NCBI GenBank assembly: GCA_009829735.1
Contig: CM020618.1
Span: 10,755,119 to 10,819,118 of the forward strand
DNA: 64,000 bases
Direction of reading: 5' to 3'
From: Pyropia yezoensis
Lineage: Eukaryota > Rhodophyta > Bangiophyceae > Bangiales > Bangiaceae
The position numbers and the translations under genes are program-made. Positions 4,650 through 64,000 of this stretch are shown piece after piece. Under the pieces are notes generated by a model. The model was not told the origin of the DNA, ran no database searches, and saw only the letters and a program-made list of their open reading frames with translations. Each line of letters opens with the position of its first letter. Position 1 is the first letter of the stretch.

Positions 4650-7600
4650 CTAGTGGGCCCTCCCCCCAGCCGGTACATTGCCCACATGCACGAGATCCGC
4701 TCCGCCCCACCGACCGCTCAAGACTCCCGCCCACCACGCATCCCACGGAGTGTCAGACTGTGCCACATAGTCCATGTCCCCAACAACGTGGAGGTGTGCC
4801 TCTGCGCGCGACAACATGACGTTCATGCGGCGCCTATCCCCGGTAAAGCGCATCATGCGTGCCCGTGTCCGTCGGTCGTCTCCGGGGATTGAGCGGGCGA
4901 GTGATAAGAACACACAGTCCACGGAAGCTCCCTGGGAGCCGTCCACGGTTGACACGTCCACAGTGTACTTGTAGGGCGACTGCTGTGGGTGACGGATGGC
5001 CGCACGCACTCGCCGCACAGCCTCGACGAGCAACCGCCGCTGTGCCGTGTACGGGCTCAGCACGAGTACGCGTAGGTCACCCGTAGGATGGCACGCCCAG
5101 CCACGCAGAATGTTCCGCAGCTCGGCTTCCACCACGCGCACCTCCACCTCATTCGAAACAGCCTTGGTGTTTGGATTGAAGTGCTCTTGTCGATCTTGCG
5201 GTGGTAGCTGGGAGGTGCTGGTAATCTCAAGCGGCCTCCGAGACGCGCGTGCCAGCCAGTCGGGCCGTAGGGATGCAGCATTGTCCCATGACGCCTTGTT
5301 CCCCATCATACCGACGCCAACAGGGATTAAAGGGTAAAACAGGCCTCCCACTATGGTCCAAAAGATCGGTCGCAATCGATGCTGGTGAGTGAGGGTGAGG
5401 TGCGGGTGGTCTCGTTGGAGGCGCTCAAATACGCTGTCGCCCATTGCGAGGAGGTCGCCGGTGTACCGGATCCCACTGCTCGGCGGCAACTGTGCGGGGT
5501 CGCCCATAAAAACCACACAGCGCGTCATGCCCGCGGCGTCGTCGCCCCCCTCCCCGGCAGCCCGGACGACAGCAGACACAGCCGCAGGGATGCTTGTCGA
5601 AGCCGCCTCGTCCACGATGATGGCGTGGTAGCCGAGCTTACCGATGGCGCTCCCCGTTGAGGTGGCGGTAGTAGTCACGACGACGGGAGCACCCCGAGCG
5701 ACTTGCGAACGCAGTTGCCGCACCGATCTCTTGACGGCCGCATTTGCCTCCAAGAGCTCGTCCCCTGCCGCTTGTGCGTCACGGACGCTGGTTGGGGAAT
5801 TCGAGTCGGAGGCCGCCAATCTCTGGAGCAAGGCCTCATGGGCCGCCGCTGCCGCCTCCTGTCGCCTGACCACGTCGGGGTAGACGCGCGGTAGAAGGTC
5901 CTTGACAACAGCGTCAATGTGCGTGGCGGCGATCGGATCGCCCTTTGGTGGTGCCAGCCCGACTCGCAACAGCACGGGCATCCGGGCCCCCGACACGGGA
6001 CCAAACGCCTGGGACAGGCTTTCCAGGTAACGCCGACCCCAGTCATGAACTTCCAGTAGCGTGTGTAGAGACAGCAGCGCCGACACAATCTGGTCACATG
6101 CGGCATTGGTCCTCGACACCAGCAGGAGCCTCGTCGTGATCGGTCCCCCGCCGCACCCACCGCCGCGCCGAATCAGCTCCATGGCCACCCCAAGAATGGT
6201 CCGCGTCTTGCCCGTGCCTGGTGGACCCGTCACGAGTACACAGCCGACACGGGGCCCGCCAAAAGCATCTGCGACAGCCCGCACGACTCCCAACTGGGAC
6301 TCGTCCAGCTCGACCGATACGTCCAGAGGGGGGGGGGGCGGCGGAGGTTGTGCGTTCGGCCACGGCTCTGGCATGACCGGCGACGACGTGCCTGGGACAA
6401 TGACAGACGACGCTCCCGTCGGAGCCGGAGGCTCAAGGCTTTCCCGTACGGCACGTGGCAAGCGCATCCATTCTCCAAGACCACTGTACTCGCGCCAGTC
6501 AGACACGATGCTCATCGACAGGGTCACGACCACAAGCCCGGCCATTCTGGTGGCGCAGGATACTAGGTCGGCATCCGTCCGGCGTACGGAAAGCCAGAGC
6601 GGCGTCGAGTTTCTGGTGCCAGCGTCACGGCCCTGCAGGGTGGTGCTCGTCGTCACTGCCTCACGACACACACACACCGCATCAATGGCGGTGCTGTAGG
6701 TGCAGCGACTCCCCTTCCCGTCCTTGTTCCCGCCGTCATCGGTGTCTGGGACTGGGACCCAGATATTGCAGAGATCGCCTGGGGAGGCATTCGCCGCATA
6801 CGTAGGTTGCCGTAAACGACGGTCATTGTCATCGCCATCATCGTCGGTTAAGTCATCCGCTCGTGTCTGGAGGGGGTGCTCTTCGACAAGGATGAGCTTG
6901 TCCACCGTCTCTGCTTGTTCGGCCTCGGTGTGGGTAGCCGCCACCACGAGTGAGCTGCCATAGTGAGCTCGCAGTTGCGCCGTGGGTGCGTGGACCGAGA
7001 CAGGGTGGTCGGGGCGACGACGATCACTGCCATTCTCCCGGTACACCTCGTCGGCGACTGTGGAGACTGTCAAATGGGCCTTGGCGGTCACCAGCCGCAG
7101 TACGCGGCACCGCCACTCGGCCGCCGATCCGGTCGCGACATCCCTGTCCTCCCCGTCATCCAGGTGAATGACAGAGGCCGGTATCCATGGTGACGTGGAG
7201 TTCACCAGGGCGCAGACGCCCATCGCTCTGCGCTGTGCCAGGTGCCCATGTAGTTCTGGGAGGTCACCGACGTCTATCAATTCTTGTGGTGTACAGGAAC
7301 CTCCTCCTCCGACTGCTCCCAGGGGCTGCACACCAGCCACTGGGACGGTACCACCGCGCACTGGGTGCGCCGTGGGACCTTGTGCAGCGTCAAGACCGCG
7401 TACGTGGACGGTTGCCACCGACGATGACTCTTGAGGTAGAGCCACAAGCCCCTCTTCCTCGTCGTCATCGATAATCTCGATGGGGTCTTCCATTGTGCCT
7501 GACCCGCTTGTGCGTACACGTACAGGCTCGCACGCGTGCTCACGTACATGCCGCGCGGCGGCGGGGCCGCTCCTGTCGCGATGACGAGCTCCAGGCCCCC

Positions 7601-9827
7601 CCTCGACGGTGCCGATAATCTCATCGACAGCGGAGCTCAATTCTCGCAAGTCCCGGCTGATCTTGCCGTAAAACAGGGTGCGCTGCACGTTGGTCAGCAC
7701 ATTCAACAGCGCCGCGCCACCGGCCAGTAGCTGCCCACGGTCGTGCGTCTGTAGCAGGCGGCTGGTAGTGATGGCCATCGTAGTTCTTGACACTGACAAC
7801 GTGTTTGGTGTTTCACGACGGCCGCGTCGCCCGACCGCTGTCCAGTACAACTCGGCGGCGGTTGGGACTTCCCGGGCCACGATACCGGGGTCACCAAAGG
7901 CTAGGCACCACACCCACGACAGGGATTCGAACCAGGCGTCTGCCACAGGCCTCTTGAACGCCCTGTAGTCGGGCCGTTCCCACGCTTCGGACGCCAGGAA
8001 GCGAACGCAGCTCAGTACCAGGCGCCGCAGGTTCCCGATGACCGACGCCGGGGTTCGTGCTGGTACTCTACCACGACCTTCGTCGAGTAAGCGTGCCAGG
8101 ATTGCAGCCAAGCGGGCTCGCGCGTCACGGCTACCAGCGGAAGGCAAGATGGCCGCGTCGCCCATGGGCAGGGCGGCCACGAATGCGTCACAGGACCGAA
8201 CGAACGCCGTGCAGACTGCAAGCGATTGCAGGGGCGCAGGCTCCTCGAGTGGTACGTCACGAGCGGCCGCAACGTGTACCAGGCGGAGGGCAGCGTCCAG
8301 GGCCAAGGCAAATATGAGGACGTCTTGATCACCTTGTACTGTGGCCTTATCCGCAGCCGACATCCTGACAACGCTCTTACACAGTCGAAGGAGAACGTCT
8401 GGGGACCACGACCGTCGCTCGTCATCCGCCTTGTTCGAATTCTCCTGCACTATGTCCATGTCAATCGAAGAAGACGCTTCTGCGTCGCACCACCGCGTCA
8501 GCAGGCACAACAGGCGCCATGTGTCCTTCCGCAAGGACTTGTCCGCTGACAACAGTAGACCGAGCCCGGTGCAGGTAAGCGTATACACAGCGGCCAACAA
8601 GCGTGTAGCGGCTTCGTCGTTCCCCTCGGGGGAGGGGTTGCAGAGAGCGGCATTAACAACCACAGTAACACCACGGAGAAGCTCGGAAACGTACGCAGTG
8701 ACAGCTGCGCTCCACGACCCAAACCCGGGGATCTCCGTGTGGGTAACAGTCGGCGCACACGCGAGGACCCCAGGTAAGGACAGCATCATGTGCATGGACG
8801 GAACCATGGCAAGTGCTCGGGCGGCCGAGCCACGGGCGGCTTGTTCCTGTGCGCCGAGCATGGATGTCGACATGGCCTGGCCTACCTCACGCCAAACGTC
8901 CGTGCACAACCCGTTGCGAGAATGTGGTAGACGAGAATCGCCGACGGAGTCGCCCGTCCGTGCCACAATGAGGTCGGTCACTCTCGACGCGTCCTCGGCC
9001 AAAAACGCAGCCAGAGCGTCTGTCGCCGCGGATGACCAACAGCCCCAGTACCATGTCAACGACAGAAACCGCAGGATATCGCCCGCTCGTACGTAGTCCT
9101 TAACAAGCGCCCCGTTCCTCAAGCCGGACAGGAGCAAGAGACATACGGCCTCCACTACAGACTCGCCCACAATACAGGGCGCGGTCGGTAGGGGCTGCCG
9201 CTCCTGGTCGCCCGCACCGCTCGCACGGGGCAGCAGGGGGAGTCCGGGCTGCTGGTCCACGCGCTGTCCCCGGGTCCCGGTCAGTAGCCCGCTCTTGGTG
9301 GCGGTGGTGGTGGCGGCACAGACAGTCAACACCGACAGCTGGGCCCCTGTCGCCCAGGAGTCCGGGTGGGTGACAGGTAGGACCATGGCAGACAGCAGCG
9401 AGGCCACAACATTGGCCGGCAGGGTCAGGGCGGATGCACCCCCGTCGCTGTGCAGAGCCGTGCACAGGGCACGCGAAAAGATGTTCATCACATCTGGCCG
9501 ATCCGCAGCCGGCCACACAAGTGCGCGCAGCTTGAGAACCGTCGCCGACGCCACGACGGGGTCGACCGGGATGTCCTTGCGTGGCGCGATAAGGCGCAAG
9601 GCCACCGCTGTCGCCCGCTCAACGGCTACCAACAGCGACGCCGCGGGGGGGCTTGGCCCCCCTAAAAAAAATGTCGTGCAAGTATCAGCAACGAGCGAGT
9701 CCAGCTGCTGTGCGTCGGCGTCGCGGGTGCCCGGAACGCCCCCAGCCCCCACAAGTGAAGGGGTAGAGGTGGCACGCCGGACACTTTCCCGAGAACCATC
9801 GTGCTCCTTGTCGCCTTGGAACTCCAT
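4650..9827 (-). CDS. Sen1/UPF1-type superfamily 1 RNA/DNA helicase (gene 1)
   Basis: 1,725 residues, intronless and intact. I place the start at the ATG at 9827 (MEFQGDKE), because the same MEFQ start is conserved in the second paralog (62055) and the longer frame would need a GTG start. The first ~830 residues have no motif I recognise but look alpha-helical, as in Sen1/senataxin. The C-terminal ~570 residues carry the SF1B core: Walker A GPPGTGKT (~1200), Ia LLVSRTNAACDQI, a charged helical insert, motif II DEAAS (~1404), motif III GDPAQLPPSS (~1440), QHRLRP (~1479), motif IV near YTAQRRLL (~1587), motif V VDGSQGASVD (~1625) and motif VI NVMLSRA (~1670). Such enzymes use ATP to unwind RNA or RNA:DNA hybrids, for example in transcription termination or RNA surveillance. 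Acidic and proline tracts link the halves. R repeats lie on both sides. Confidence 0.9.
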   Translation of the reverse strand: MEFQGDKEHDGSRESVRRATSTPSLVGAGGVPGTRDADAQQLDSLVADTCTTFFLGGPSPPAASLLVAVERATAVALRLIAPRKDIPVDPVVASATVLKLRALVWPAADRPDVMNIFSRALCTALHSDGGASALTLPANVVASLLSAMVLPVTHPDSWATGAQLSVLTVCAATTTATKSGLLTGTRGQRVDQQPGLPLLPRASGAGDQERQPLPTAPCIVGESVVEAVCLLLLSGLRNGALVKDYVRAGDILRFLSLTWYWGCWSSAATDALAAFLAEDASRVTDLIVARTGDSVGDSRLPHSRNGLCTDVWREVGQAMSTSMLGAQEQAARGSAARALAMVPSMHMMLSLPGVLACAPTVTHTEIPGFGSWSAAVTAYVSELLRGVTVVVNAALCNPSPEGNDEAATRLLAAVYTLTCTGLGLLLSADKSLRKDTWRLLCLLTRWCDAEASSSIDMDIVQENSNKADDERRSWSPDVLLRLCKSVVRMSAADKATVQGDQDVLIFALALDAALRLVHVAAARDVPLEEPAPLQSLAVCTAFVRSCDAFVAALPMGDAAILPSAGSRDARARLAAILARLLDEGRGRVPARTPASVIGNLRRLVLSCVRFLASEAWERPDYRAFKRPVADAWFESLSWVWCLAFGDPGIVAREVPTAAELYWTAVGRRGRRETPNTLSVSRTTMAITTSRLLQTHDRGQLLAGGAALLNVLTNVQRTLFYGKISRDLRELSSAVDEIIGTVEGGPGARHRDRSGPAAARHVREHACEPVRVRTSGSGTMEDPIEIIDDDEEEGLVALPQESSSVATVHVRGLDAAQGPTAHPVRGGTVPVAGVQPLGAVGGGGSCTPQELIDVGDLPELHGHLAQRRAMGVCALVNSTSPWIPASVIHLDDGEDRDVATGSAAEWRCRVLRLVTAKAHLTVSTVADEVYRENGSDRRRPDHPVSVHAPTAQLRAHYGSSLVVAATHTEAEQAETVDKLILVEEHPLQTRADDLTDDDGDDNDRRLRQPTYAANASPGDLCNIWVPVPDTDDGGNKDGKGSRCTYSTAIDAVCVCREAVTTSTTLQGRDAGTRNSTPLWLSVRRTDADLVSCATRMAGLVVVTLSMSIVSDWREYSGLGEWMRLPRAVRESLEPPAPTGASSVIVPGTSSPVMPEPWPNAQPPPPPPPLDVSVELDESQLGVVRAVADAFGGPRVGCVLVTGPPGTGKTRTILGVAMELIRRGGGCGGGPITTRLLLVSRTNAACDQIVSALLSLHTLLEVHDWGRRYLESLSQAFGPVSGARMPVLLRVGLAPPKGDPIAATHIDAVVKDLLPRVYPDVVRRQEAAAAAHEALLQRLAASDSNSPTSVRDAQAAGDELLEANAAVKRSVRQLRSQVARGAPVVVTTTATSTGSAIGKLGYHAIIVDEAASTSIPAAVSAVVRAAGEGGDDAAGMTRCVVFMGDPAQLPPSSGIRYTGDLLAMGDSVFERLQRDHPHLTLTHQHRLRPIFWTIVGGLFYPLIPVGVGMMGNKASWDNAASLRPDWLARASRRPLEITSTSQLPPQDRQEHFNPNTKAVSNEVEVRVVEAELRNILRGWACHPTGDLRVLVLSPYTAQRRLLVEAVRRVRAAIRHPQQSPYKYTVDVSTVDGSQGASVDCVFLSLARSIPGDDRRTRARMMRFTGDRRRMNVMLSRAEAHLHVVGDMDYVAQSDTPWDAWWAGVLSGRWGGADLVHVGNVPAGGRAH

Positions 9828-9954
9828 TGAAGATCCAGGTGTGCAGGTACCCGGCGCAGCGGGTAACACGGACCGCGACGTACCGACGACCGACGACCAG
9901 GCGCACAGGGGCACACGCGCCCACCGAAAAAGGGCAAGAGAAGTGTGCGGGGGG

Positions 9955-47268: not shown

Positions 47269-47389
47269 GAACGAATAAACCGCGTCTATCGGTGTGAACG
47301 ACCCAACAACAGATGGAGACAACACTTTCCCGCCCCCCCCCCTCTTCCCCTCTCAGACGGCCCCGCCCCCCCCCCCCCCCCCCTCTCAC

Positions 47390-48262
47390 GCCCCCCCTGG
47401 GGTCGTCCAGTGATCGTACCACCCCGAATTCACAGTTTCCATTTCACACCCACCCCCTCTCACGCCTCCCCTGGTGTCGTCCAGTGATCGTGCCACCCCA
47501 AATTCGCAGTTTCCATTTCACATACCACCCCTCTCACACTCCCCCCTGGTGTCGTCCAGTGATCGTGCCACCCCAAATTCGCAGTTTCCATTTCACCCCC
47601 ACCCCCCTCTGACGCCCCCCCTGGTGTCGTCCAGTGGTCGTGGACGACCAAATTCACAGTTTACACTTCACACCCACCCCTTCTCACGCCTCCCCTGGTT
47701 TCGTCCAGTGATCGTGCCACACCAAATTCGCAGTTTCCATTTCACCCCCACCCCCCTCTGACGCCCCCCCTGGTGTCGTCCAGTGGTCGTGGACGACCAA
47801 ATTCACAGTTTACACTTCACACCCACCCCCTCTCACGCCTCCCCTGGTGTCGTCCAGTGATCGTGCCACCCCAAATTCACAGTTTCCATTTCACCCCCAC
47901 CCCCCTCTGACGCCCCCCCTGGTGTCGTCCAGTGGTCGTGCCACCCCAAATTCACAGTTTCCATTGCACCCCCACCCCCCTCTGACGCCCCCCCTTGTGT
48001 CGTCCAGTGGTCGTGGACGACCAAATTCACAGTTTACACTTCACACCCACCCCTTCTCACGCCTCCTCTGGTGTCGTCCAGTGATCGTGCCACCCCAAAT
48101 TCGCAGTTTCCATTTCACCCCCACCCCCCTCTGACGCCCCCCCTTGTGTCGTCCAGTGGTCGTGGACGACCAAATTCACAGTTTCCATTTCACACCCACC
48201 CCCTCTCACGCCTCCCCTGGTGTCGTCCAGTGATCGTGCCACCCCAAATTCACAGTTTACAT
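47390..48262. repeat. 74/75-bp minisatellite, 12 units, partly dimeric
   Basis: Units begin GTCGTCCAGTG at 47402, 47476, 47551, 47626, 47700, 47775, 47849, 47924, 47999, 48073, 48148 and 48222. Two types alternate over much of the array: A (ATCGTGCCACCCCAAATTC) and B (GTCGTGGACGACCAAATTC), giving a ~149-bp higher-order unit. B units (47626, 47775, 47999, 48148) contain arms GTCGTCCA and TGGACGAC separated by 7 nt, a possible hairpin. Not a CRISPR: units are contiguous without unique spacers. It ends where the 5.77-kb duplicated block begins. Confidence 0.95.
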
Positions 48263-48369
48263 TTCAACCCTCTCGGCGTACTCGTCAAACGCCCGCTTCC
48301 AGGAGATCCCCACATGCATTTTGAGGAGGGGGACGCCCTCTCCATTGGCGTCCAGGATGCGCGCGCCAT

Positions 48370-50145
48370 TCAGCTCTGCTGCTGCAAGCGCAGCGCGCAG
48401 ACGCTCTCTCGGTCGCGCTCCCGGGAGGCGGACACACGGCCCGTGGCGGCGCCATCACCACGGGGAGGGGCGCCTGGAACAGGCCCGGACCCGCCCTCAG
48501 GGACACTTCCCACAAAGCCCGGCACGGGGGACTGGCACTCGCCGACTGCCCCCACGCTGGGGGCGCCGGCTGCTCGGCCAGCAGCCAGGGGCAGACGGGC
48601 TGCTGGCGTGGCAGGCGCCACGAGCGGGGGGGCGGGCCGGCCAGAGCTGAGGGCGTCCACCTTCCGCTCCGGTCGGGTGATCACCGTCGTCAGCTGGTAG
48701 ATCCTTTCTGCGTGATCGGCCTTGACGTCGTCGAGCCACGCGTTGGCGAACCCCGCCAGTGCATCAGCAGCAATGCCTGACGAGCATGGATTGGCACACC
48801 CTGCTGCCGGATGCCGTTTGTGGATTGGTGAGAGGTATGCCCGCACGCTGGAGGGCTGCGCGGCACCCTTCAGCCATTGGAAGGCCACACATTCTTCGAC
48901 CATTATTGCGGTAGCCGGCCGGCGCCATAACCGGCGGCGGGTACAGCTCTAAACGACAAAACGCGCAGCTCAGCTTGAGGGATGCTGCTGGACGGTGGTC
49001 GTGGGCAGCAGCGGCAATGAAATCGGCCTGGTCGCGCCGCCATCCCGAGGCCACTGGAGCCCACCACTCCGGAAGCGGAAGATTGCGACGCGCCAATACA
49101 CGGGCTGCGGTAGCCAAACCGCAACACAGGCAGCACCCACGGCGACGCGCCGATCTGAGCCCCTCGGTCCAGCGAGGCTCACACGCGCGCGGACAGGGAG
49201 TCGGGGGGCGTCTGGGAGCTTTCGCTGCCATACACCTTCCCCGCGGCTTGCCGCTTCGCCCGGGATGGTCGGCCACGGCGGTTGCCTGCCGCGTTGGGTG
49301 CCCTCCCACCCGGCAGGCGAGGTGGGGGGCCCGACCGCAGCTGTCGCTCAGACGGGGGCACGCTCGGTCGCCCTGCGCGAGGATTCGGCGAGCACCACGG
49401 GGCCTTTGGCCCCTGAGCCGCCTCGGGCTGCTCCGCCGCCCCCATCCGTCGTGACGGCCACCGCCGCCGTCGTCGCCGCCCCTGCCCCCGGCATCTCCGT
49501 TGCCGCTGCCACCGCCGCCGCCGCCGCCGCCGCCGCCACCGCCACCGCCGCCGCCACCGCCACCGCAACCGCCGCCGCCGCCACCGTCACAGCCGCCACC
49601 GCCGCCACCGCCGCCACCACCGCCACCGCCACCGCCGGCGCAGCCGCCACCGGCGCGGCCTTGAGCCCCTCCGCCGCCTCGACCATCTTCTCCATCGGGG
49701 GCACCCGCCGCCGGTCCGTTGTCGTCTCGGCCACCGCGAGCCTCTTGAGCACCGGAGTTAGCACGAGGCTGCCCGTTCTGGCGCCGACGAGCGCTGGATG
49801 AAAGAGGGGCGGCGGGGGTCGACGGAACGCGCGGCGAGCGGCGCGGGCATAGGCGAGCTTGGACTAGCTGCCCCTCCTCTCTTGAGATGGCAAACGTATG
49901 GTAGGCGAGCACCGACGCCTCAAAGAAAGAGGTTGCGGTGCGGTAGATGGAGTCGCGGTCGTCGTGCGCCAGTAAGAGGTCCTGTGTGTTGGCGGCCAGC
50001 GTCGGGTAGGTCTGCTGCTGCGTCAATACGGTGTAGCGAGTGACCAAGATGTGGAAGTGCTGGTGCAATGCCGTGCGTGTGTAGAGATCAACGCGTGGTG
50101 ACGCTCGTGCACAGTGACCTCGCCGTGCAGGCGGTCCACCTCGGC
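48370..50145 (-). pseudogene. Tyrosine-recombinase-like N-terminal domain fragment and upstream ORF (copy 1)
   Basis: The open minus-strand sequence begins near 50145 just beyond the 3' end of helicase gene 2. The first part (TRTALHQHFHILVTRY, TYPTLAANTQDLLLAHDDRD, FFEASVLAYHTFA) is not recognised. A long Gly run encoded by (GCC)n at 49490-49660 follows, then SLKLSCAFCRLELYP, and after a 1-nt frame difference MVEECVAFQWLKG and PSSVRAYLSPIHKRHPAAG, ending at 48370. The pattern V-E-x-V-A-F...G-x-x-P-S-S-V-R-x-Y-L-S-x-I...H-x-x-A-G is that of the SAM-like core-binding domain of tyrosine recombinases. No catalytic R...HxxR...Y domain follows; the minisatellite lies downstream. The equivalent in copy 2 is 54641-56410, where different indels break the frame. 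Likely a truncated mobile-element gene; could be a coincidence of a short motif. Confidence 0.4.
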
Positions 50146-50284
50146 GAATCGATCGGAGGCACCCGACGAAGAAGGCAAGAAACAAAGCAGAAAAAACGAG
50201 CTCGTGGACCAGCAGAAAAAACAAGCTCGTGGACCCCCCCCGGCCTCCCCTTCCCCCAATGCAGCGACCACAGTGGCCTCCATG

Positions 50285-53200
50285 TCACAAGCACCCTGGC
50301 GCCGGGCGCCCCTGCTGGTGCCCCCCCCGCCCAGTGGGTACATAGCTCACACGCACGAGATTCGCTCCGCCCCACCGACCGCTCAAGACTCCCGCCCACC
50401 ACGCATCCCACGGAGTGTTTGACTGTGCCACATAGTCCATGTCCCCAACAACGTGGAGATGTGCCTCTGCGCGCGACAGCATAACGTTCATGCGGCGCCT
50501 ATCTCCGGTAAAGCGCATCATGCGACTCCGTGTCTGTTGGTCGTCTCTGGGGATTGAGCGGGCAAGTGACAAGAACACACAATCCACGGAAGCTCCCTGG
50601 GAGCCGTCCACGGTTGCCACGTCCACAGTGTACTTGTAGTGCGTCTGCGGTGGGCGACGGATGGTCGCACGCACTCGCCGCGCAGCCGCGTCAAGCAACC
50701 GCCGCTGTGCCGTGTACGGGCTCAGCACGAGTACGCGTAGGTCACCCATAGGACGGGACGCCCAGCCACGCAGAATGTTCCGTAGCTCGTCTTCCACTAC
50801 GCGCACCTCCACCAGGTTCGAAACACCCTTGGTATCTGGATTGAAGTCCTCTTGCCGATCTTGGGGCGGTAGCTGGGAGGTGCTGGTAATCTCAAGCGGC
50901 CTCCGAGACGCGCGTACCAGCCAGTCGGGCCATAGGGGTACTGCATTGTCCCATGACGCCTTGTTCCCCATCATACCAGCGCCAACAGGGATTGAGGAGT
51001 AAAACAGGCCCCTCACTATCGTCCAAAAAATCGGTCGCAGTCGATGCTGGTGAGTGAGGGTGAGCTGCGGGTGGTCCCGCTGGAGCCACTCAAACACGCT
51101 ATCGCCCATTGCGATGAGGTCGCCGGTGTACCGCATCCCACTGCTCGGCGGCAACTGTGCGGGGTCGCCCATAAACACCACACAGCGCGTCATCCTCGCG
51201 GCCTCATCGCCACCCTCCCCGGCAGCCCGGACGACAGCAGACACGGCCGCAGGGACGCTTGTCGAAGCCGCCTCGTCCACGATGATGACATGGTAGCCAA
51301 GGTCACCGATGGCGTTCCCCGTCGAGGTGGCGGTAGTAGTCACCACAATAGGAGCACCCTGAGCGACTTGCGAATGCAGTCGCCGCACCGACTTCTTGAC
51401 GGCCGCATTCGCCTCCACGAGTTCATCCCCTGCCGCTTGTGCGTCACGGACGCTGGTTGGGTCATTCGAGCCGGAAGCTCCCAAGCTCTGGAGCAAGGCC
51501 TCATGGGCTGCCGCTGCCGCCTCCTGTCGCCGGACCACGTCGGGGTAGACGCGAGGTAGTAGGTCCTTGACAACAGCGTCAATGTGCGTGGCGGCGATCG
51601 GATCGCCCTTTGGTGGTGCCAGCCCGACTCGCAACAGTACTGGCATCCGGGCCCCCGCCACAGAACCAAACGCCTGTGACAGGCTTTTCAGGTAACGCCG
51701 ACCCCAGTCATGACGCTCCAGTAGCGCGTGTAGGGACAGCAGCGCCGACACAATCTGGTCACATGCGGCATTGGTCCTCGACACCAGCAGCAGCCTTGTC
51801 ATGATCGGCCCCCCGTCTCCACACCCACAGCCGCGCCGAATCAGCTCCATGGCAACCCCCAGAATGGTCCGCGTCTTGCCCGTGCCTGGTGGACCCGTCA
51901 CGAGTACACAGGAGACACGGGGCCCGCCAAAAGCATCTGCGACAGTTCGCACGACTCCCAGCTGGGACTCGTCCAGGTCGACCGCTATGTCCAGAGGGGG
52001 GGGGGGCGGCGGAGGTCGCGGCGGAGGTGGCGGCGGAGGTTGGGCGTTCGGCCACGGCTCCAGTATGACCGGCGACGACGTGCCTGGGACAACAACAGAC
52101 GACGCTCCCGTCGGTACCGGTGGCTCAAGGCTTTTCCGTATGGTGCGTGGCAATCGCATCCATTCACCGAGGCCACTGTACTCGCGCCAGTCAGAGACGA
52201 TGCTCATCGACAGGGTCACGACCACAAGCCCTGCCATTTTGGTGGCACAGGGTAGTAGGTGGGCGTCCGTTCGCCGTACAAAAAACCAGAGCGGCGTCGC
52301 CTTTGTGCTGCCAGAGCCACGGCCCTGCAGGGCGGTGCCCCTCGTCACTGCCTCGCGGCTCACACACACCGCATCAATGGAGGTGCTGTAGGTACCGCGG
52401 GTCTCCTTCCCGCCCTTGTTCCCGTCGACACTGGCGTCTGGGACCGGGACCCAGATATTGCAAAGATCCCCCGGGGAGGCATTCGCCGCGTACGTTGGTT
52501 GCCGTACGCGACGGTCATTGTCATCGCCGTCATCGTCGGTTGACTCGTCCGCGCGTATCTGGAGGGGGTGCTCTTGTACGAGGATGAGCACGTCCACCGT
52601 CCCTGCTTGTTCGGCCTCGGTGTGGGTAGCCGCCAACGCGAGCGAGCGGCCATAGAGAGCGTACAGATGCGCCGTGGGTGCCTGGACCGGGACAGGGCGG
52701 CCGCGGGGACCGCGATCACCACCGTCCTTCCAGAACATCTCATCGGCGACTGTGGAGACTGTCAAACTGGCCTTGGTGGTCACCAGCCGCAGCACGCGGC
52801 GCCGCCACTCGGCCGCCGATCCGGTCGCGTCCTCCGCGTCCTCGCCATCATCCAGGAGACTGGCAGAGACCGTTTTCCATGACGACGTTGAGGTCAACAG
52901 GGCGCAGACGCCCATTGCTTTGCGTTGTGCCAGGCGTCCTGACAGTTCCGGGAGGTCGCCGACGTCTGTCATTTCGCGTGGTGTGCTCGACCGTCCTCCG
53001 TCTGCTGCCCGGGCTGCACACCAGCCACTGGCACGGTACCACAGCGCATTGGGTGCGCCTTCAAACCATGTGTAAGGTCAACACCCCGTACGTTGAAGGC
53101 TTGCGCCGACGCTGACTCTGGAGGTAGAGCCACAAGCCCCACTTCCTCGTCGTCATCAATAATCTCAATGGGGTCTTCCATTGTACCTGACCCGCTTGTC

Positions 53201-54026
53201 CGCACACGTCCAGGCTCGCGCGTGTGCGTATGCACATGCCGCGCGGCATTGGTGCCGCTACCGCCGCGATGACGAGCTCCTTGACCCCCCTCGAGGTTGC
53301 CTATAATCTCATGGACGGTGGAGCGCAGTTCTCGCAAGTCCCGGCCGACCTTGCCGACAAACAGGGTGCGCTGCACGTTGGTCAGGCACATTCAACAGCG
53401 TCGCGCCACCGACCAGCAGCTGCCCACGGTCGTGCGCCTGTAGCAGGCGGCTGGTAGTGCTGGCCATCGTAGTTCTTGACACTGACAATGTGGCTGGTAC
53501 GCCACGCTGGCCGCGTCGCCCGACCGCGGTCCAATAAAACTCGGCGGCGGTTGCGGCTTCCCGGGCCACGGTACCGGGGCCACCAAAGGCTAGGCACCAC
53601 ACCCACGGCAGGGAGTCGAACCAGGCGTCCGCCACAGCCCTTTTGAACGCCCCTGTGCTCGGGGCGTTCCCACGCTTCGGACGCCAGAAGCAAACTCAAG
53701 CGCAGTAGCAGGCGCCGCAGGTTTCCCGATGACAGACTCCAGGGTCCTTGCAGGTATTCTACCACGACCTTCGTCGAGAAGACGTGCGAGGATTCAAACC
53801 AGGCGGGTTCGCGCGCCACGGCCACCAGTGGAAGCCAAGGTGGTGGCGTCACCCATCGGTAGGGCGGCCACGAATGCGTCACAGCCCGAACAAACGCTGT
53901 ACAGACTGCAAGCGATTGTAGGGGCGTTGACTCCTCGGATGATAGGTCACGTGCGGCCTGCAACGTGCACCAGGCGAAGGGCAGCGTCCAGGGCCAAGGC
54001 AAAGATAAAGAGCGGGCCGTTTGTCG
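50285..54026 (-). CDS. Sen1/UPF1-type helicase gene 2, copy 1 (partial, indel-disrupted)
   Basis: Paralog of the gene at 4650-9827. The C-terminal 895 residues (52972-50285) are open and contain every helicase motif: GPPGTGKT, SRTNAACDQI, DEAAS, GDPAQLPPSS, QHRLRP, VDGSQGASVD, NVMLSRA. Upstream of that the frame is broken by single-base differences from copy 2 at about 53010, 53385, 53651, 53723, 53884 and 53957; in each case the other copy or gene 1 keeps the frame. An additional in-frame TGA at 53794-53796 is also present in copy 2. The sequence stops at the gap, about 600 residues from the N-terminus. The 3' end differs from gene 1 (tail GRGGHQQGRPAPGCL). Confidence 0.8.
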
Positions 54027-54526
54027 NNNNNNNNNNNNNNNNNNNNNNNNNNNNNNNNNNNNNNNNNNNNNNNNNNNNNNNNNNNNNNNNNNNNNNNNNN
54101 NNNNNNNNNNNNNNNNNNNNNNNNNNNNNNNNNNNNNNNNNNNNNNNNNNNNNNNNNNNNNNNNNNNNNNNNNNNNNNNNNNNNNNNNNNNNNNNNNNNN
54201 NNNNNNNNNNNNNNNNNNNNNNNNNNNNNNNNNNNNNNNNNNNNNNNNNNNNNNNNNNNNNNNNNNNNNNNNNNNNNNNNNNNNNNNNNNNNNNNNNNNN
54301 NNNNNNNNNNNNNNNNNNNNNNNNNNNNNNNNNNNNNNNNNNNNNNNNNNNNNNNNNNNNNNNNNNNNNNNNNNNNNNNNNNNNNNNNNNNNNNNNNNNN
54401 NNNNNNNNNNNNNNNNNNNNNNNNNNNNNNNNNNNNNNNNNNNNNNNNNNNNNNNNNNNNNNNNNNNNNNNNNNNNNNNNNNNNNNNNNNNNNNNNNNNN
54501 NNNNNNNNNNNNNNNNNNNNNNNNNN
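54027..54526. other. Assembly gap (500 N, nominal size)
   Basis: A round 500-N gap lying exactly between the two copies of the duplicated block. The flanking sequences behave as two overlapping contig ends. Confidence 0.98.
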
Positions 54527-57500
54527 TTTACATTTCAACCCTCTCGGCGTACTCGTCAAACGCCCGCTTCCAGGAGATCCCCACATGCATTTTGAGGAGG
54601 GGGACGCCCTCTCCATTGGCGTCCAGGATGCGCACGCCATTCAGCTCTGCTGCTGCAAGCGCAGCGCGCAGACGCTCTCTCGGTCGCGCTCCCGGGAGGC
54701 GGACACACGGCCCGTGGCGGCGCCATCACCACGGGGAGGGGCGCCTGGAACAGGCCCGGACCCGCCCTCAGGGACACTTCCCACAAAGCCCGGCACGGGG
54801 GACTGGCACTCGCCGACTGCCCCCACGCTGGGGGCGCCGGCTGCTCGGCCAGCAGCCAGGGGCAGACGGGCTGCTGGCGTGGCAGGCGCCACCAGCGGGG
54901 GGGCGGGCCGGCCAGAGCTGAGGGCGTCCACCTTCCGCTCCGGTCGGGTGATCACCGTCGTCAGCTGGTAGATCCTTTCTGCGTGATCGGCCTTGACGTC
55001 GTCGAGCCACGCGTTGGCGAACCCCGCCAGTGCATCAGCAGCAATGCCTGACGAGCATGGATTGGCACACCCTGCTGCCGGATGCCGTTTGTGGATTGGT
55101 GAGAGGTATGCCCGCACGCTGGAGGGCTGCGCGGCACCCCTTCAGCCATTGGAAGGCCACACATTCTTCGACCATTATTGCGGTAGCCCGGCCGGCGCCA
55201 TAACCGGCGGCGGGTACAGCTCTAAACGACAAAACGCGCAGCTCAGCTTGAGGGATGCTGCTGGACGGTGGTCGTGGGCAGCAGCGGCAATGAAATCGGC
55301 CTGGTCGCGCCGCCATCCCGAGGCCACTGGAGCCCACCACTCCGGAAGCGGAAGATTGCGACGCGCCAATACACGGGCTGCGGTAGCCAAACCGCAACAC
55401 AGGCAGCACCCACGGCGACGCGCCGATCTGAGCCCCTCGGTCCAGCGAGGCTCACACGCGCGCGGACAGGGAGTCGGGGGCGTCTGGGAGCTTTCGCTGC
55501 CATACACCTTCCCCGCGGCTTGCCGCTTCGCCCGGGATGGTCGGCCACGGCGGTTGCCTGCCGCGTTGGGTGCCCTCCCACCGGCAGGCGAGGGTGGGGG
55601 GCCGACCGCAGCTGTCGCTCAGACGGGGGCACGCTCGGTCGCCCTGCGCGAGGATTCGGCGAGCACCACGGGGCCTTTGGCCCCTGAGCCGCCTCGGGCT
55701 GCTCCGCCGCCCCCATCCGTCGTGACGGCCACCGCCGCCGTCGTCGCCGCCCTGCCCCCGGCATCTCCGTTGCCGCTGCCACCGGCCGCCGCCGCCGCCG
55801 CCGCCGCCACCGCCACCGCCGCCGCCACCGCCACCGCAACCGGCGCCGCCGCCACGTCACAGCCGCCACGCCGCCACCGCCGCCACCACCGCCACCGCCA
55901 CCGCCGCGCAGCCGCCACCGGCGCGGCCTTGAGCCCTCCGCGCCTCGACCATCTTCTCCATCGGGGGCACCCGCCGCCGGTCCGTTGTCGTCTCGGCCAC
56001 CGCGAGCCTCTTGAGCACCGGAGTTAGCAGAGGCTGCCCGTTCTGGCGCCGACGAGCGCTGGATGAAAGAGGGGCGGCGGGGGTCGACGGAACGCGCGGC
56101 GAGCGGCGCGGGCATAGGCGAGCTTGGACTAGCTGCCCTCCTCTCTTGAGATGGCAAACGTATGGTAGGCGAGCACCGACGCCTCAAAGAAAGAGGTTGC
56201 GGTGCGGTAGATGGAGTCGCGGTCGTCGTGCGCCAGTAAGAGGTCCTGTGTGTTGGCGGCCAGCGTCGGGTAGGTCTGCTGCTGCGTCAATACGGTGTAG
56301 CGAGTGACCAAGATGTGGAAGTGCTGGTGCAATGCCGTGCGTGTGTAGAGATCAACGCGTGGTGACGCTCGTGCACAGTGACCTCGCCGTGCAGGCGGTC
56401 CACCTCGGCGAATCGATCGGAGGCACCCGACGAAGAAGGCAAGAAACAAAGCAGAAAAAACGAGCTCGTGGACCAGCAGAAAAAACAAGCTCGTGGACCC
56501 CCCCGGCCTCCCCTTCCCCCAATGCAGCGACCACAGTGGCCTCCATGTCACAAGCACCCTGGCGCCGGGCGCCCCTGCTGGTGCCCCCCCCGCCCAGTGG
56601 GTACATAGCTCACACGCACGAGATTCGCTCCGCCCACCGACCGCTCAAGACTCCGCCACCACGCATCCCACGGAGTGTTTGACTGTGCCACATAGTCCAT
56701 GTCCCCAACAACGTGGAGATGTGCCTCTGCGCGCGACAGCATAACGTTCATGCGGCGCCTATCTCCGGTAAAGCGCATCATGCGACTCCGTGTCTGTTGG
56801 TCGTCTCTGGGGATTGAGCGGGCAAGTGACAAGAACACACAATCCACGGAAGCTCCCTGGGAGCCGTCCACGGTTGCCACGTCCACAGTGTACTTGTAGT
56901 GCGTCTGCGGTGGGCGACGGATGGTCGCACGCACTCGCCGCGCAGCCGCGTCAAGCAACCGCCGCTGTGCCGTGTACGGGCTCAGCACGAGTACGCGTAG
57001 GTCACCCATAGGACGGGACGCCCAGCCACGCAGAATGTTCCGTAGCTCGTCTTCCACTACGCGCACCTCCACCAGGTTCGAAACACCCTTGGTATCTGGA
57101 TTGAAGTCCTCTTGCCGATCTTGGGGCGGTAGCTGGGAGGTGCTGGTAATCTCAAGCGGCCTCCGAGACGCGCGTACCAGCCAGTCGGGCCATAGGGGTA
57201 CTGCATTGTCCCATGACGCCTTGTTCCCCATCATACCAGCGCCAACAGGGATTGAGGAGTAAAACAGGCCCCTCACTATCGTCCAAAAATCGGTCGCAGT
57301 CGATGCTGGTGAGTGAGGGTGAGCTGCGGGTGGTCCCGCTGGAGCCGCTCAAACACGCTATCGCCCATTGCGATGAGGTCGCCGGTGTACCGCATCCCAC
57401 TGCTCGGCGGCAACTGTGCGGGGTCGCCCATAAACACCACACAGCGCGTCATCCTCGCGGCCTCATCGCCACCCTCCCCGGCAGCCCGGACGACAGCAGA

Positions 57501-60283
57501 CACGGCCGCAGGGACGCTTGTCGAAGCCGCCTCGTCCACGATGATGACATGGTAGCCAAGGTCACCGATGGCGTTCCCCGTCGAGGTGGCGGTAGTAGTC
57601 ACCACAATAGGAGCACCCTGAGCGACTTGCGAATGCAGTCGCCGCACCGACTTCTTGACGGCCGCATTCGCCTCCACGAGTTCATCCCCTGCCGCTTGTG
57701 CGTCACGGACGCTGGTTGGGTCATTCGAGCCGGAAGCTCCCAAGCTCTGGAGCAAGGCCTCATGGGCTGCCGCTGCCGCCTCCTGTCGCCGGACCACGTC
57801 GGGGTAGACGCGAGGTAGTAGGTCCTTGACAACAGCGTCAATGTGCGTGGCGGCGATCGGATCGCCCTTTGGTGGTGCCAGCCCGACTCGCAACAGTACT
57901 GGCATCCGGGCCCCCGCCACAGAACCAAACGCCTGTGACAGGCTTTTCAGGTAACGCCGACCCCAGTCATGACGCTCCAGTAGCGCGTGTAGGGACAGCA
58001 GCGCCGACACAATCTGGTCACATGCGGCATTGGTCCTCGACACCAGCAGCAGCCTTGTCATGATCGGCCCCCCGTCTCCACACCCACAGCCGCGCCGAAT
58101 CAGCTCCATGGCAACCCCCAGAATGGTCCGCGTCTTGCCCGTGCCTGGTGGACCCGTCACGAGTACACAGGAGACACGGGGCCCGCCAAAAGCATCTGCG
58201 ACAGTTCGCACGACTCCCAGCTGGGACTCGTCCAGGTCGACCGCTATGTCCAGAGGGGGGGGGGGCGGCGGAGGTCGCGGCGGAGGTGGCGGCGGAGGTT
58301 GGGCGTTCGGCCACGGCTCCAGTATGACCGGCGACGACGTGCCTGGGACAACAACAGACGACGCTCCCGTCGGTACCGGTGGCTCAAGGCTTTTCCGTAT
58401 GGTGCGTGGCAATCGCATCCATTCACCGAGGCCACTGTACTCGCGCCAGTCAGAGACGATGCTCATCGACAGGGTCACGACCACAAGCCCTGCCATTTTG
58501 GTGGCACAGGGTAGTAGGTGGGCGTCCGTTCGCCGTACAAAAAACCAGAGCGGCGTCGCCTTTGTGCTGCCAGAGCCACGGCCCTGCAGGGCGGTGCCCC
58601 TCGTCACTGCCTCGCGGCTCACACACACCGCATCAATGGAGGTGCTGTAGGTACCGCGGGTCTCCTTCCCGCCCTTGTTCCCGTCGACACTGGCGTCTGG
58701 GACCGGGACCCAGATATTGCAAAGATCCCCCGGGGAGGCATTCGCCGCGTACGTTGGTTGCCGTACGCGACGGTCATTGTCATCGCCGTCATCGTCGGTT
58801 GACTCGTCCGCGCGTATCTGGAGGGGGTGCTCTTGTACGAGGATGAGCACGTCCACCGTCCCTGCTTGTTCGGCCTCGGTGTGGGTAGCCGCCAACGCGA
58901 GCGAGCGGCCATAGAGAGCGTACAGATGCGCCGTGGGTGCCTGGACCGGGACAGGGCGGCCGCGGGGACCGCGATCACCACCGTCCTTCCAGAACATCTC
59001 ATCGGCGACTGTGGAGACTGTCAAACTGGCCTTGGTGGTCACCAGCCGCAGCACGCGGCGCCGCCACTCGGCCGCCGATCCGGTCGCGTCCTCCGCGTCC
59101 TCGCCATCATCCAGGAGACTGGCAGAGACCGTTTTCCATGACGACGTTGAGGTCAACAGGGCGCAGACGCCCATTGCTTTGCGTTGTGCCAGGCGTCCTG
59201 ACAGTTCCGGGAGGTCGCCGACGTCTGTCATTTCGCGTGGTGTGCTCGACCGTCCTCCGTCTGCTGCCCCGGGCTGCACACCAGCCACTGGCACGGTACC
59301 ACAGCGCATTGGGTGCGCCTTCAAACCATGTGTAAGGTCAACACCCCGTACGTTGAAGGCTTGCGCCGACGCTGACTCTGGAGGTAGAGCCACAAGCCCC
59401 ACTTCCTCGTCGTCATCAATAATCTCAATGGGGTCTTCCATTGTACCTGACCCGCTTGTCCGCACACGTCCAGGCTCGCGCGTGTGCGTATGCACATGCC
59501 GCGCGGCATTGGTGCCGCTACCGCCGCGATGACGAGCTCCTTGACCCCCCTCGAGGTTGCCTATAATCTCATGGACGGTGGAGCGCAGTTCTCGCAAGTC
59601 CCGGCCGACCTTGCCGACAAACAGGGTGCGCTGCACGTTGGTCAGCACATTCAACAGCGTCGCGCCACCGACCAGCAGCTGCCCACGGTCGTGCGCCTGT
59701 AGCAGGCGGCTGGTAGTGCTGGCCATCGTAGTTCTTGACACTGACAATGTGGCTGGTACGCCACGCTGGCCGCGTCGCCCGACCGCGGTCCAATAAAACT
59801 CGGCGGCGGTTGCGGCTTCCCGGGCCACGGTACCGGGGCCACCAAAGGCTAGGCACCACACCCACGGCAGGGAGTCGAACCAGGCGTCCGCCACAGCCCT
59901 TTTGAACGCCCTGTGCTCGGGGCGTTCCCACGCTTCGGACGCCAAGAAGCAAACTCAGCGCAGTAGCAGGCGCCGCAGGTTCCCGATGACAGACTCCAGG
60001 GTCCTTGCAGGTATTCTACCACGACCTTCGTCGAGAAGACGTGCGAGGATTCAAACCAGGCGGGTTCGCGCGCCACGGCCACCAGTGGAAGCCAAGGTGG
60101 TGGCGTCACCCATCGGTAGGGCGGCCACGAATGCGTCACAGGCCCGAACAAACGCTGTACAGACTGCAAGCGATTGTAGGGGCGTTGACTCCTCGGATGA
60201 TAGGTCACGTGCGGCTGCAACGTGCACCAGGCGAAGGGCAGCGTCCAGGGCCAAGGCAAAGATAAAGAGCGGGCCGTTTGTCG
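54527..60283. repeat. 5.77-kb duplicated block, copy 2 (starts at gap)
   Basis: Begins TTTACATTTCAACCC, the same bases that end the minisatellite at 48256, and continues past 60283 into unique sequence. Offset to copy 1 drifts from 6271 to 6257 through small indels. Many indels fall near its start (55137, 55188, 55475, 55580-55600, 55750-55870, 56635-56655). Confidence 0.95.
54641..56410 (-). pseudogene. Recombinase-like fragment, copy 2
   Basis: Same sequence as 48370-50145. Here MVEECVAFQWLKG is in frame with the preceding RAVPAAGYGAGRATAI segment, but an extra C near 55138 separates it from RAYLSPIHKRH, the reverse of copy 1. The poly-Gly region has further small deletions. Both copies thus carry different frame breaks over the same underlying sequence. 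Confidence 0.38.
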
Positions 60284-62055
60284 GGTAGAGCTCCTGATCA
60301 CCTTGTACTGTGGCCTCATTCACGGCCGTCATCCTGGCAACGCTCTTGCACAGTCGAAGCAGAACGTCTGGGGACCACGACCGTCGCTCGTCATCCGCCC
60401 TCTTCGAATCCTCCGGTACCACGTCAATCGAAGAATTATCTGGGTCGTACCAATTCGTCAGCTGGCACATCAAGTGCCTTGCGGCCTTCCGCAATGACTT
60501 TTCCGATGACAATAGTAGACCGAGCCCGGTGCCGGCAAGGGTATACACAGCGGCCGACAAGTGAGTAACGACTTCGTCGTTCTCCTCGAGGGAGGGGTTG
60601 CAAAAAACGGCGGTAACACCACGGAGAAGCTGCGAAACATACGCAACGACAGCTGCGCTCCACGAACCAAACCCGGGGATCTGCGTAGGGGTAGCAGCCG
60701 GCAGAAACGCGAGGATCCCTGGTAAGGAAACCATCTCACACATGGACGGACGAACAACCATGGCAAGTGCACGGGCGGCCGGGCCATGGGCGTCTTGTTC
60801 CGTTGCACCGTGCATGGATGTCGACATGGCCTGGGACATCTCACGCCAAACGCCCGTGCACAACTTGACGCGAGAACTTGGGTGATGAGACTCGCCGACG
60901 GAGTCGCCCGCGAGAGCGAGGTGGACCACTCTCGATGAGTCTTCGGTCACAAGCGCAGCCAGAGCGTTCGTCGCCGCCGCCGACGACCAGCAGCCCGAGC
61001 ACCATGCCATCGACAGAAAGCGGAGGATATCACCCGCACCTACGTAGCCCTCAACAAGCGTCCCATTTCTCAAGCCGGACAAGAGGAGGAGACACACAGC
61101 CTCCACTACAGACTCGCCCAGAAAACCGGGCGCGGTCGGTAGGGGCTGGCGCGCCTGGTCACCCGCACCGCTCGCACGGGGCAGCAGCGGGACGTCGCGC
61201 TGGTCCACGCGCCGCCTCCGGGCCCCAGTCGGTAGCCCGCTCGTGGTGGTGGTGGTGGTAGTGGTGGTGGCACAGACAGCCAACACCGACAGTTGGGCCC
61301 CCGTTACCCAGGCGTCTGGGTGGGTGACGGGCAGGACCATGGCGGACAGCAGCGGGGCGACAACATTGGCCGGCAGGGTCAGGACGGGCGCACCCCCAGC
61401 GCTGCGCAGGGCCGTGCACAGGGCACGGGAAAAGATGCTCATCACATCTGGCCGATCCGCAACCGGCCACACGAGTGCGCGCAGCTTGAGAACCGTTGCC
61501 GACGCCACGACGGGGTCGACCGGGAGGTCCTTGTGCGGTGCGATTAGGCGCACAGCCACCGCTGTCGCCCGCTCAACGGCCCCCAACAGCGACGCCCTTG
61601 GGGGGGCTTGCCCCCCCCCAAAAAAACGTCTTACACGTATCGGCAACGAGCGAGTCCAGCAGCTGTGCGTCGGCGTCACGGGTCCTGTTTGCAGCGGGGA
61701 GGGAAGCTTCGCCGGTTGCTGCCGCTGCTTCTGCTACAGGTACAGCGACAGGTGCGGGGAAGGAAGCTTCGCCGGTTGCCTCCGCTGCTTCTGCTACAGG
61801 TACAGCGACAGGTGCGGGGAGGGAAGCTTCGCCAGTTGCTGCCGCTGCTTCTGCTACATGTACAGCGACAGGTGCTGTTGCCACCATACGACCGGGAACA
61901 TTCCCGTGGGAGGCGGACGGGGCTCGGAGGGTGGCTGGCACGGGTGGGGCATCGGCACCCGTAATGCCCCCAGCGCCCGCAGTTGTTGGGGTGGAGGTGG
62001 TACGCCGGACACCGTCCCGGGTACCCGCGTCCTCGTTGTCGTCCTGGAACTCCAT
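56548..62055 (-). CDS. Sen1/UPF1-type helicase gene 2, copy 2 (full length, disrupted)
   Basis: The start is the ATG at 62055 (MEFQDDNE), matching gene 1. The N-terminus has a 20-residue repeat (VAVPVAEAAAATGEASLPAP) in three copies, absent from gene 1. Frame breaks: a C9 run at 61611-61619 between ASPPK and QAPPRASLL; an in-frame TGA at 60051-60053 (gene 1 has Ala there; copy 1 shares the TGA); an indel pair at 59945-59962; and A5 instead of A6 at 57285-57289 within the QHRLRPIFWT motif. Three bases lost in total at 56635-56655 change a few residues but keep frame. All helicase motifs are otherwise present. Copy 1 corrects the indels but not the TGA, so the gene may be a pseudogene, or may be translated from a downstream start. 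Confidence 0.8.
61691..61875. repeat. 60-bp coding tandem repeat, three copies
   Basis: Period exactly 60 bp (61691, 61751, 61811), core AAGCTTCGCCGGTTGCTGCC, with few differences. It encodes the 20-residue Ala/Val/Glu repeat in the N-terminus of helicase gene 2. Confidence 0.95.
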
Positions 62056-62194
62056 CAAAGATCCAGGTGTGCAGGTTTCAGGCGCACAGGGCCACACGGG
62101 CCGCCCCGCACCCCCGGCCCTACCAGCAACAAAGACGACGACCAGGTGCACAGGGGGCACACACGCCCACCGGAAAAGGGACAAGAGCAGTGGG

Positions 62195-62810
62195 AGAGTG
62201 GGGGAAGGAGAGGGCAAGAGCGGTGGGCGGGCGGGAAGAGGCACACGAGGGGCAACCGGTCCCCGCACTGGGCGTCGCCAGTTGAGGGCCACCTCTAGCC
62301 TGCCTCTCCCCACGCACGCACCGCCCTATACCCACCTTCCCACCCTCCCCCACCACCTCCTCAACCCACCCCCCCCCACCCGCCGCCTCCTCCCCCCCCC
62401 CCACTCTTCTTACCTTGGCCGGGACGGGGCAACAGGAGCGGGCGCGTGCACGGGGAAGGCGAACGTGCTAAACCGGCCTGGGAAAGGAAAGGGGGGAGAG
62501 AACGGCGTGGAGAGGGGAGAGGCGGAGGAGGCGGGTGGGCGAGGGGGGTAAGGAGAGGGCAAGAGCGGTGGGCGGGCGGGAAGAGGCAGACGAGGGGCAA
62601 CCGGTCCCCGCACAGGGCGTCGCCAGTTGAGGGCCACCTCTAGCCTGCCTCTCCCCACGCACGCACCGCTCTATACCCAGCGGTAGCAGCATGAGTGCAA
62701 GTAAGAAGCGCGCAGGGCACAGGTGCGCCGAGGGCCGATTGTCGGTAGTGGAAATGCACAGGCGCGCCGAGGGTCGATTGTCGGTAGTGGAAAGGGTGCG
62801 ACGAGTCGTC
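62195..62810 (+). repeat. Diverged repeat R copies upstream of helicase gene 2
   Basis: Two copies of a shared block (GGAGAGGGCAAGAGCGGTGG ... GTCGCCAGTTGAGGGCCACC ... CCCCACGCACGCACCG), at 62205-62345 and 62553-62680. The first continues into the pyrimidine-rich part and a GGCCGGGA-CGGGGCAACAGGAGCGGGCGCGTGCACG match to R; the second continues into a module also at 16260-16340, where a 39-bp unit (GCGCCGAGGG-CGATTGTCGG) is doubled at 62725 and 62764. Position relative to the helicase ATG is the same as for gene 1. Confidence 0.75.
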
Positions 62811-63117: not shown

Positions 63118-63160
<43 letters not shown>

Positions 63161-63805: not shown

Positions 63806-64000
63806 ACGCACACCCCCACACCCCCCCCCACGAAGCGCGCCCCGAAGGCCGCCCGTCCGCCGCCCATGCTGCCAACAGGTGCCCCACACCCGCCACCGCA
63901 CACGCCACCACCCACGACGACGAGACCGCCGCCGCGACCAGTTACCGCCTCGCTGCGGCGCGTCGCCGTCGTCGTCGCCCGCCCGTCGCCGATGACAGCC

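What the first reader, a model, noticed from the sequence alone, without database searches (positions are those of the whole stretch)
48256..60283. Probable false tandem duplication: two overlapping contig ends left unmerged around a 500-N gap
The sequence shows a 5.77-kb block twice. Copy 1 ends exactly at the gap's left edge and copy 2 begins exactly at its right edge, the geometry of a dovetail overlap between contigs. Differences are nearly all 1-nt indels, often in homopolymers, with only a few substitutions. Indels cluster near the gap in copy 1 and in the first ~2 kb of copy 2. A true tandem duplication would have no reason to share its boundaries with an assembly gap. Gene counts taken from this region (helicases, recombinase fragments) would be inflated.
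Basis: partly seen in the sequence, partly recalled or inferred. Interest (0 to 1): 0.75.

Follow-up and report, generated by a model that had tools for sequence, protein, structure and literature searches.

The report
False duplication at an assembly gap
The 5.8-kb "tandem duplication" in this seaweed chromosome is most likely one stretch of DNA written twice, because two overlapping contig ends were placed side by side around a filler gap; it is an ordinary assembly error that makes one helicase gene copy look like two.

Summary
Window 48256-54026 (A) and 54527-60283 (B) flank a 500-N gap and differ by 28 one-base indels and 4 substitutions. The genome is the 2020 Pyropia yezoensis assembly, identified by scaffold sizes. 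The block belongs to a dispersed family coding for a Sen1/Upf1-like helicase, matched at 22 places. Family copies polarise the differences: by the closest one, all 20 indels at 48866-51025 are B's deviations and all 8 at 53008-53957 are A's, each near that contig's gap-facing end. Between them lie 1,919 identical bases. The closest paralog shows the opposite spectrum, 54 substitutions to 1 gap. A and B share 34 alleles found in no sampled paralog. Two of these sites create in-frame stops, so this helicase copy was already decayed. The extra frame breaks fall in each copy's error zone. None of 21 other family places shows a comparable tandem overlap. A and B are most likely one locus, left unmerged because the contigs end inside a repeat. 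Gap geometry alone would not prove this. A very young true duplication is not excluded without reads.

The parts
48256..54026 (+). Copy A: gap-facing right end of the left contig. No A-specific indel up to 53007, then 8 one-base indel deviations in the last 1.02 kb.
54027..54526 (.). 500-N gap between the two contig ends
54527..60283 (+). Copy B: gap-facing left end of the right contig. 20 one-base indel deviations and all 4 A/B substitutions lie in its first 2.82 kb; beyond that no B-specific change was found.
50285..53008 (-). C-terminal half of the Sen1/Upf1-like helicase frame in A (aa 867-1754 of the 1,754-aa relative; AAA_11 and AAA_12), open without stops
57255..61625 (-). N-terminal part of the same helicase frame in B (aa 82-1528), in one register but with two in-frame stops (60051-60053, 59955-59957) that rest on alleles shared with A; register lost at about 57285 in B's error zone
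47372..48270 (+). Minisatellite of about 75-bp units at the left edge of A; also present in the C3:5.42 Mb copy
4650..9914 (-). Older in-window relative (86% DNA identity) with one uninterrupted 1,754-aa ORF; used as yardstick

Best explanation
The locus exists once. Two contigs that overlap by about 5.77 kb inside a multi-copy helicase-coding repeat were not merged by the assembler, and scaffolding then placed them next to each other with a 500-N spacer. Each contig's gap-facing end is poorly corrected, so it carries single-base indels, mostly in homopolymers. The result is a false tandem duplication (homotype type) that shows one helicase copy, itself already carrying two in-frame stops, as two copies with further frame breaks. 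Shown here: the overlap, the error polarity, the common private alleles, the frames, and the single layout elsewhere. Inferred: that low read depth at the contig ends caused the errors, that repeat content hindered merging, and that the spacer comes from the Hi-C step.
For: (1) Polarity: the closest paralog (C3:5.42 Mb) sides with A at all 20 indels of 48866-51025 and with B at all 8 of 53008-53957; 26 of 28 have no dissent among the 3-9 family places compared per site. If positions were independent of polarity, that split has probability 3e-7. (2) Spectrum: A/B 4 substitutions to 28 indels; closest paralog against B 54 to 1 over 4,501 columns; Fisher P 2e-17. Against A, all 10 compared places have 5.4-39.5 substitutions per gap opening, A's own errors included. 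(3) Same copy: 34 alleles shared by A and B and absent from the 3 or more paralogs sampled per site; 53 sites where A=B differ from C3:5.42; two of the private alleles make in-frame stops, absent from all 18 family rows aligned at each stop; 1,919 identical bases where about 23 substitutions would be expected at the paralog's divergence. (4) Frame: A is in register for aa 867-1754 and B for aa 82-1528; register is lost from 53008 in A and at about 57285 in B. (5) Layout: the C3:5.42 copy has left flank, one block and right flank, contiguously; 0 of 21 other places has a comparable overlap (898 aa here, at most 48 aa elsewhere). (6) Pipeline: PacBio RSII, HGAP3, SSPACE, PBJelly2, Quiver, BioNano, Hi-C, from homozygous thalli.
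Against: Four substitutions separate A and B. At 48363 and 48622, A is the odd one out and B has the family base (4 of 4 places); at 51088 B has the commoner family base (7 of 9 places) while A agrees with the closest paralog and one other. These could be real copy differences. All four lie in B's error-rich first 2.82 kb, so reads of other family members leaking into B's end could explain them, but that was not tested. In B's first 440 bp there is no A=B private site that would tie it to this locus. Three other 500-N gaps abutting this family show no dovetail, so the pipeline does not make dovetails routinely. Read depth could not be checked.
Confidence: 0.93

Rival explanations
1. A real, very young tandem duplication: two almost identical units exist, the assembler broke inside them, and part of the unit is hidden in the gap.
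For: The gap geometry fits equally well (A ends and B begins at gap edges whenever contigs break inside tandem units). Three of the four substitutions are compatible with real copy differences.
Against: 0 of 21 other family places found shows a comparable tandem overlap. There are no A/B substitutions in the 2.94 kb beyond 51088. The indels are explained as end errors. It needs an event younger than the 34 shared private alleles, including two nonsense changes.
Confidence: 0.05
2. Two allelic haplotigs (heterotype false duplication) placed in series.
For: It would give the same layout, and there are a few substitutions.
Against: DNA came from thalli described as homozygous. Divergence is nearly all indels located at contig ends, not spread as allelic variation would be.
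Confidence: 0.01
3. Misjoin: A and B come from different genomic copies of the repeat and were put together because of their similarity.
For: The block is multi-copy, and contigs do end inside this family at three other gaps.
Against: A and B share 34 alleles absent from the sampled paralogs and differ together from the closest one at 53 sites; two shared alleles are nonsense changes. The closest fetched copy is about 98.8% identical over the comparable stretch.
Confidence: 0.01

Closest known systems
Homotype false duplication at contig boundaries (Rhie et al. 2021, PMC8081667; Ko et al. 2022, PMC9516828)
   Same: Duplicate pair on one scaffold separated by a gap, at contig boundaries, caused by sequencing error rather than heterozygosity (passages seen).
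   Different: Here it lies inside a dispersed multi-copy repeat, which gave internal outgroups. Read-depth and k-mer criteria used by those papers could not be applied.
Heterotype false duplication (haplotigs in series)
   Same: Same geometry around a gap.
   Different: Needs heterozygosity; the source here is described as homozygous and the differences are end-clustered indels.
SF1 helicases of the Sen1/Upf1 group (content of the block)
   Same: AAA_11 and AAA_12 above Pfam cut-offs; best PDB match Helicase SEN1, chain 5mzn_A, 4.4e-13.
   Different: About 1,750 aa with an N-terminal half without a Pfam match, in a family dispersed over all three large scaffolds.

Membership tests
Homotype false duplication | Gap between the two copies on one scaffold, both copies ending at it | tested here: met
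Homotype false duplication | Differences are sequencing errors of differing consensus quality, not alleles | tested here: met
   28 of 28 indels assigned by the closest paralog to the copy whose gap-facing end is near (26 of 28 without dissent among all places); 4:28 against 54:1 in a true paralog. Three of the 4 substitutions are not explained as simple errors.
Homotype false duplication | Low or sub-haploid read depth and abnormal k-mer copy number | not testable with these tools
   No reads held. Run accessions are given in PMC7423979.
Homotype false duplication | Length close to that of the reads | tested here: inconclusive
   Overlap 5.77 kb; the read lengths of this project were not seen.
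Heterotype false duplication | Heterozygous source and haplotype-specific variants along the block | tested here: not met
   Thalli described as homozygous; no difference over 1,919 bases, indels only at ends. Not tested on reads.
True tandem duplication | Substitutions phased to each copy along the whole unit | tested here: inconclusive
   4 substitutions, all in B's error-rich first 2.82 kb, none in the other 2.94 kb.
True tandem duplication | Junction of the two units visible in sequence | not testable with these tools
   Any junction would lie in the 500-N gap.
Sen1/Upf1-like SF1 helicase (content of the block) | AAA_11 and AAA_12 helicase domains | tested here: met
   6e-19 and 4.9e-24, both above the curated cut-off; best PDB chain is SEN1
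Sen1/Upf1-like SF1 helicase (content of the block) | Sen1-type N-terminal domain recognised by Pfam | tested here: not met
   No N-terminal match in the 1,754-aa ORF at E up to 0.01. That Pfam holds such a model is recalled.

The most novel reading that the evidence does not exclude
The falsely doubled block is one (decayed) member of a large dispersed, probably mobile unit of this red alga that I did not find described (paper searches only). The unit carries its own long Sen1/Upf1-like helicase, still open in seven other nearly full-length copies, so the helicase may help the unit spread or be maintained.
Probability: 0.2. Interest if true: 0.45.

Novelty: not a real feature. Interest (0 to 1): 0.12.

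Why it matters
Anyone counting helicase genes, pseudogenes or tandem duplications in this nori reference would score one locus as two tandem ones, with frame breaks that are mostly assembly errors; the two shared in-frame stops look real. The method carries over: in a multi-copy repeat, other copies act as outgroups that show which copy of a suspected false duplication carries the errors, without any reads. It also shows that gap-edge geometry alone is not proof of a dovetail.

Tried and rejected
Geometry as proof: rejected, because a broken true tandem array looks the same. Misjoin of two different repeat copies: rejected on shared private alleles. Haplotigs: rejected on the source described as homozygous and on the differences being end-clustered indels.

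A statement corrected on rechecking: in a draft I took the helicase of this locus to be intact. ORF ends and the stop check show two in-frame stops in B's clean part. The changed bases are A=B private sites, so this copy was decayed before the assembly error.

Generality: I looked for overlaps at the three other 500-N gaps that turned up next to family copies, C3:23925151-23925650, C3:26217697-26218196 and C1:15617986-15618485. 0 of 3 has a dovetail: no hit at E 1e-10 at the first two, and at the third only 72-81% hits of up to 269 columns in the minisatellite-like part. The 474-N gap at 18212-18685 has related tandem units of about 27 bp on both sides and is not a dovetail of this kind.

Rows left out of counts: the polarisation and allele counts used alignments of at least 300 columns and left out the loci that are A and B themselves (L001, L002, L009, L011, L017). 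Not all 22 places were sampled (11 groups, 10 with alignments). The C3 copy against A also shows gaps: 8 over 3,530 columns, and 12 over 4,198 columns reaching into the minisatellite; against B's left end it shows 20 over 3,389 columns.

Element identity: Pfam gave nothing for neighbouring ORFs except a sub-threshold ribbon-helix-helix hit at 61243-62298. The high-copy sequence that starts at 45103 turned out, in the 4 copies fetched, to be a roughly 350-bp piece of another repeat, not a shared terminus of the helicase unit. A paper search for Sen1, helicase, transposon and 'red alga' together found 0 papers. A search for at least 3 of Pyropia yezoensis, transposable, helicase and recombinase gave 395 papers, of which I saw the 10 listed, none on this alga.

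Full report
What is there. The window holds a 500-N gap at 54027-54526 and a 474-N gap at 18212-18685. Around the 500-N gap, 48256-54026 (A) and 54527-60283 (B) align from first to last base, with 28 one-base indels and 4 substitutions; 27 of the 28 indels are in runs of two or more equal bases.

Where it comes from. The window is C1:10755119-10819118 of a 107,475,971-base genome in 11 contigs. Its three large contigs are 43.59, 34.33 and 29.39 Mb, matching scaffolds S3, S2 and S1 (43.6, 34.3 and 29.4 Mb) of Pyropia yezoensis in PMC7423979 (passages seen). The assembly section of that paper (read whole) names homozygous thalli, PacBio RSII, HGAP3, SSPACE with 5-kb mate pairs, PBJelly2, Quiver, BioNano and Hi-C. 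That indel-dominated error is typical of uncorrected PacBio CLR sequence, and that some Hi-C scaffolders insert 500-N spacers, is recalled and comes from no call.

The block is repeated DNA. A 1.5-kb probe found 21 matches in the genome, itself and short ones included, and a 1,754-aa protein probe gave 39 matches at 22 places, this locus counted once; the tool calls such counts lower bounds. The closest relative, on C3 at about 5.42 Mb, is 97.7-100% identical in the pieces compared over window 45276-65415 outside the minisatellite, where the aligned piece falls to 93.7%. This matters in two ways. It may explain why contigs end here: three further 500-N gaps abut family copies. And it supplies outgroups.

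Polarity test. For each A/B difference I asked which copy the 3-9 alignable family places resemble. The closest paralog sides with A at all 20 indels between 48866 and 51025 and with B at all 8 between 53008 and 53957. 26 of 28 have no dissenting place; 49637 is split 1:1 with 3 ties and 50234 is 5:1. So B deviates near B's gap-facing end (20 in 2.76 kb) and A deviates near A's (8 in 1.02 kb). The two rates, about 0.7% and 0.8%, are alike. Between them A and B are identical for 1,919 bases.

Spectrum control. Against the C3 paralog, B shows 54 substitutions and 1 gap over 4,501 columns and 57 and 1 over 3,551 (overlapping stretches, mostly outside B's error zone). A against B shows 4 and 28. 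Fisher P is 2e-17 and 6e-18. In the error zones themselves the C3 paralog shows the expected excess of gaps: 20 against B's left end and 8 against A from 50500 to 54026. Against A, all 10 compared places have 5.4 to 39.5 substitutions per gap opening. Real divergence in this family is mostly substitutional; A/B divergence is not.

Same locus test. A and B share 34 alleles seen in none of the paralogs sampled at those sites, and at 53 sites they agree with each other against C3:5.42. Two of the private sites (53696 and 53796) create in-frame stops in the helicase frame, at B 59955-59957 and 60051-60053. None of the 18 family rows aligned at either stop has a stop there (rows overlap in place). 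A and B are the same copy, or split after these changes arose. No such private site lies in the first 440 bp of the block.

Frame test. The in-window relative at 4650-9914 is a single 1,754-aa ORF. Aligned to it, A keeps one register for aa 867-1754, without stops, and loses it from 53008 outwards. B keeps one register for aa 82-1528, with the two shared stops, and loses it at about 57285. Seven other places cover aa 59-1754 or more without a stop. So the register shifts fall in each copy's error zone, while the two stops appear to be real decay of this copy.

Layout test. Of 22 places, only this one has two pieces overlapping substantially on the protein (898 aa); the largest overlap among the other 21 is 48 aa.

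What speaks against. Four substitutions remain. One (49572) is a B deviation. At 48363 and 48622 A is alone against four places and B; at 51088 B agrees with seven places, A with two, including the closest. A true recent duplication would show such differences. All four lie in B's error-rich first 2.82 kb, so admixture of reads from other copies at B's end is the more economical reading, but it is inference.

Comparison with the known. Rhie et al. 2021 (PMC8081667) and Ko et al. 2022 (PMC9516828) describe homotype false duplications: near contig boundaries, separated by gaps, from read errors (passages seen). This case meets the two features that could be decided here; read length is inconclusive, and depth and k-mer criteria are untested. 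It is an ordinary artefact of a known kind.

The helicase unit. The frame carries AAA_11 and AAA_12 domains, with Helicase SEN1 as the nearest solved chain. Its N-terminal half has no Pfam match. No transposase or recombinase was found in the ORFs scanned, so 'mobile element' is a guess from dispersal and copy number.

Noticed in passing
window 45276-64000 (to about C1:10820533) and C3:5413112-5426563: A dispersed unit of roughly 14 kb (false duplicate discounted) with a Sen1/Upf1-like helicase; helicase matches at 22 places, 7 of them nearly full length without stops. Possibly a mobile element of red algae; its ends were not determined.
   Followed up: partly
window 59955-59957 and 60051-60053: Two in-frame stops in this locus's helicase frame, resting on alleles shared by A and B and absent from the family rows aligned there: this copy is decayed.
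   Followed up: yes
window 2862-3521, 9949-10294, 16352-16497, 62190-62679: Repeats of about 145-350 bp near the helicase units in direct and inverted orientation; elsewhere they form tandem arrays (for example C1:8759252-8763501).
   Followed up: no
window 44149-45104: Two adjoining pieces (472 and 489 bp) occur at 99-100% identity at C1:10843314-10843785 and C1:10860578-10861066, about 24-42 kb to the right of the window; unexplained local duplication or rearrangement.
   Followed up: no
window 18212-18685: 474-N gap with related tandem units of about 27 bp on both sides; the uneven size suggests an estimated gap rather than a fixed spacer.
   Followed up: partly
L024:1501-2400 (C3:26218197 onward): Another helicase copy that begins at a 500-N gap and shows frame breaks within about 0.85 kb of it, a similar contig-end pattern without a dovetail.
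   Followed up: partly
window 30542-35707: 1,721-aa ORF with malectin and IPT/TIG domains.
   Followed up: no
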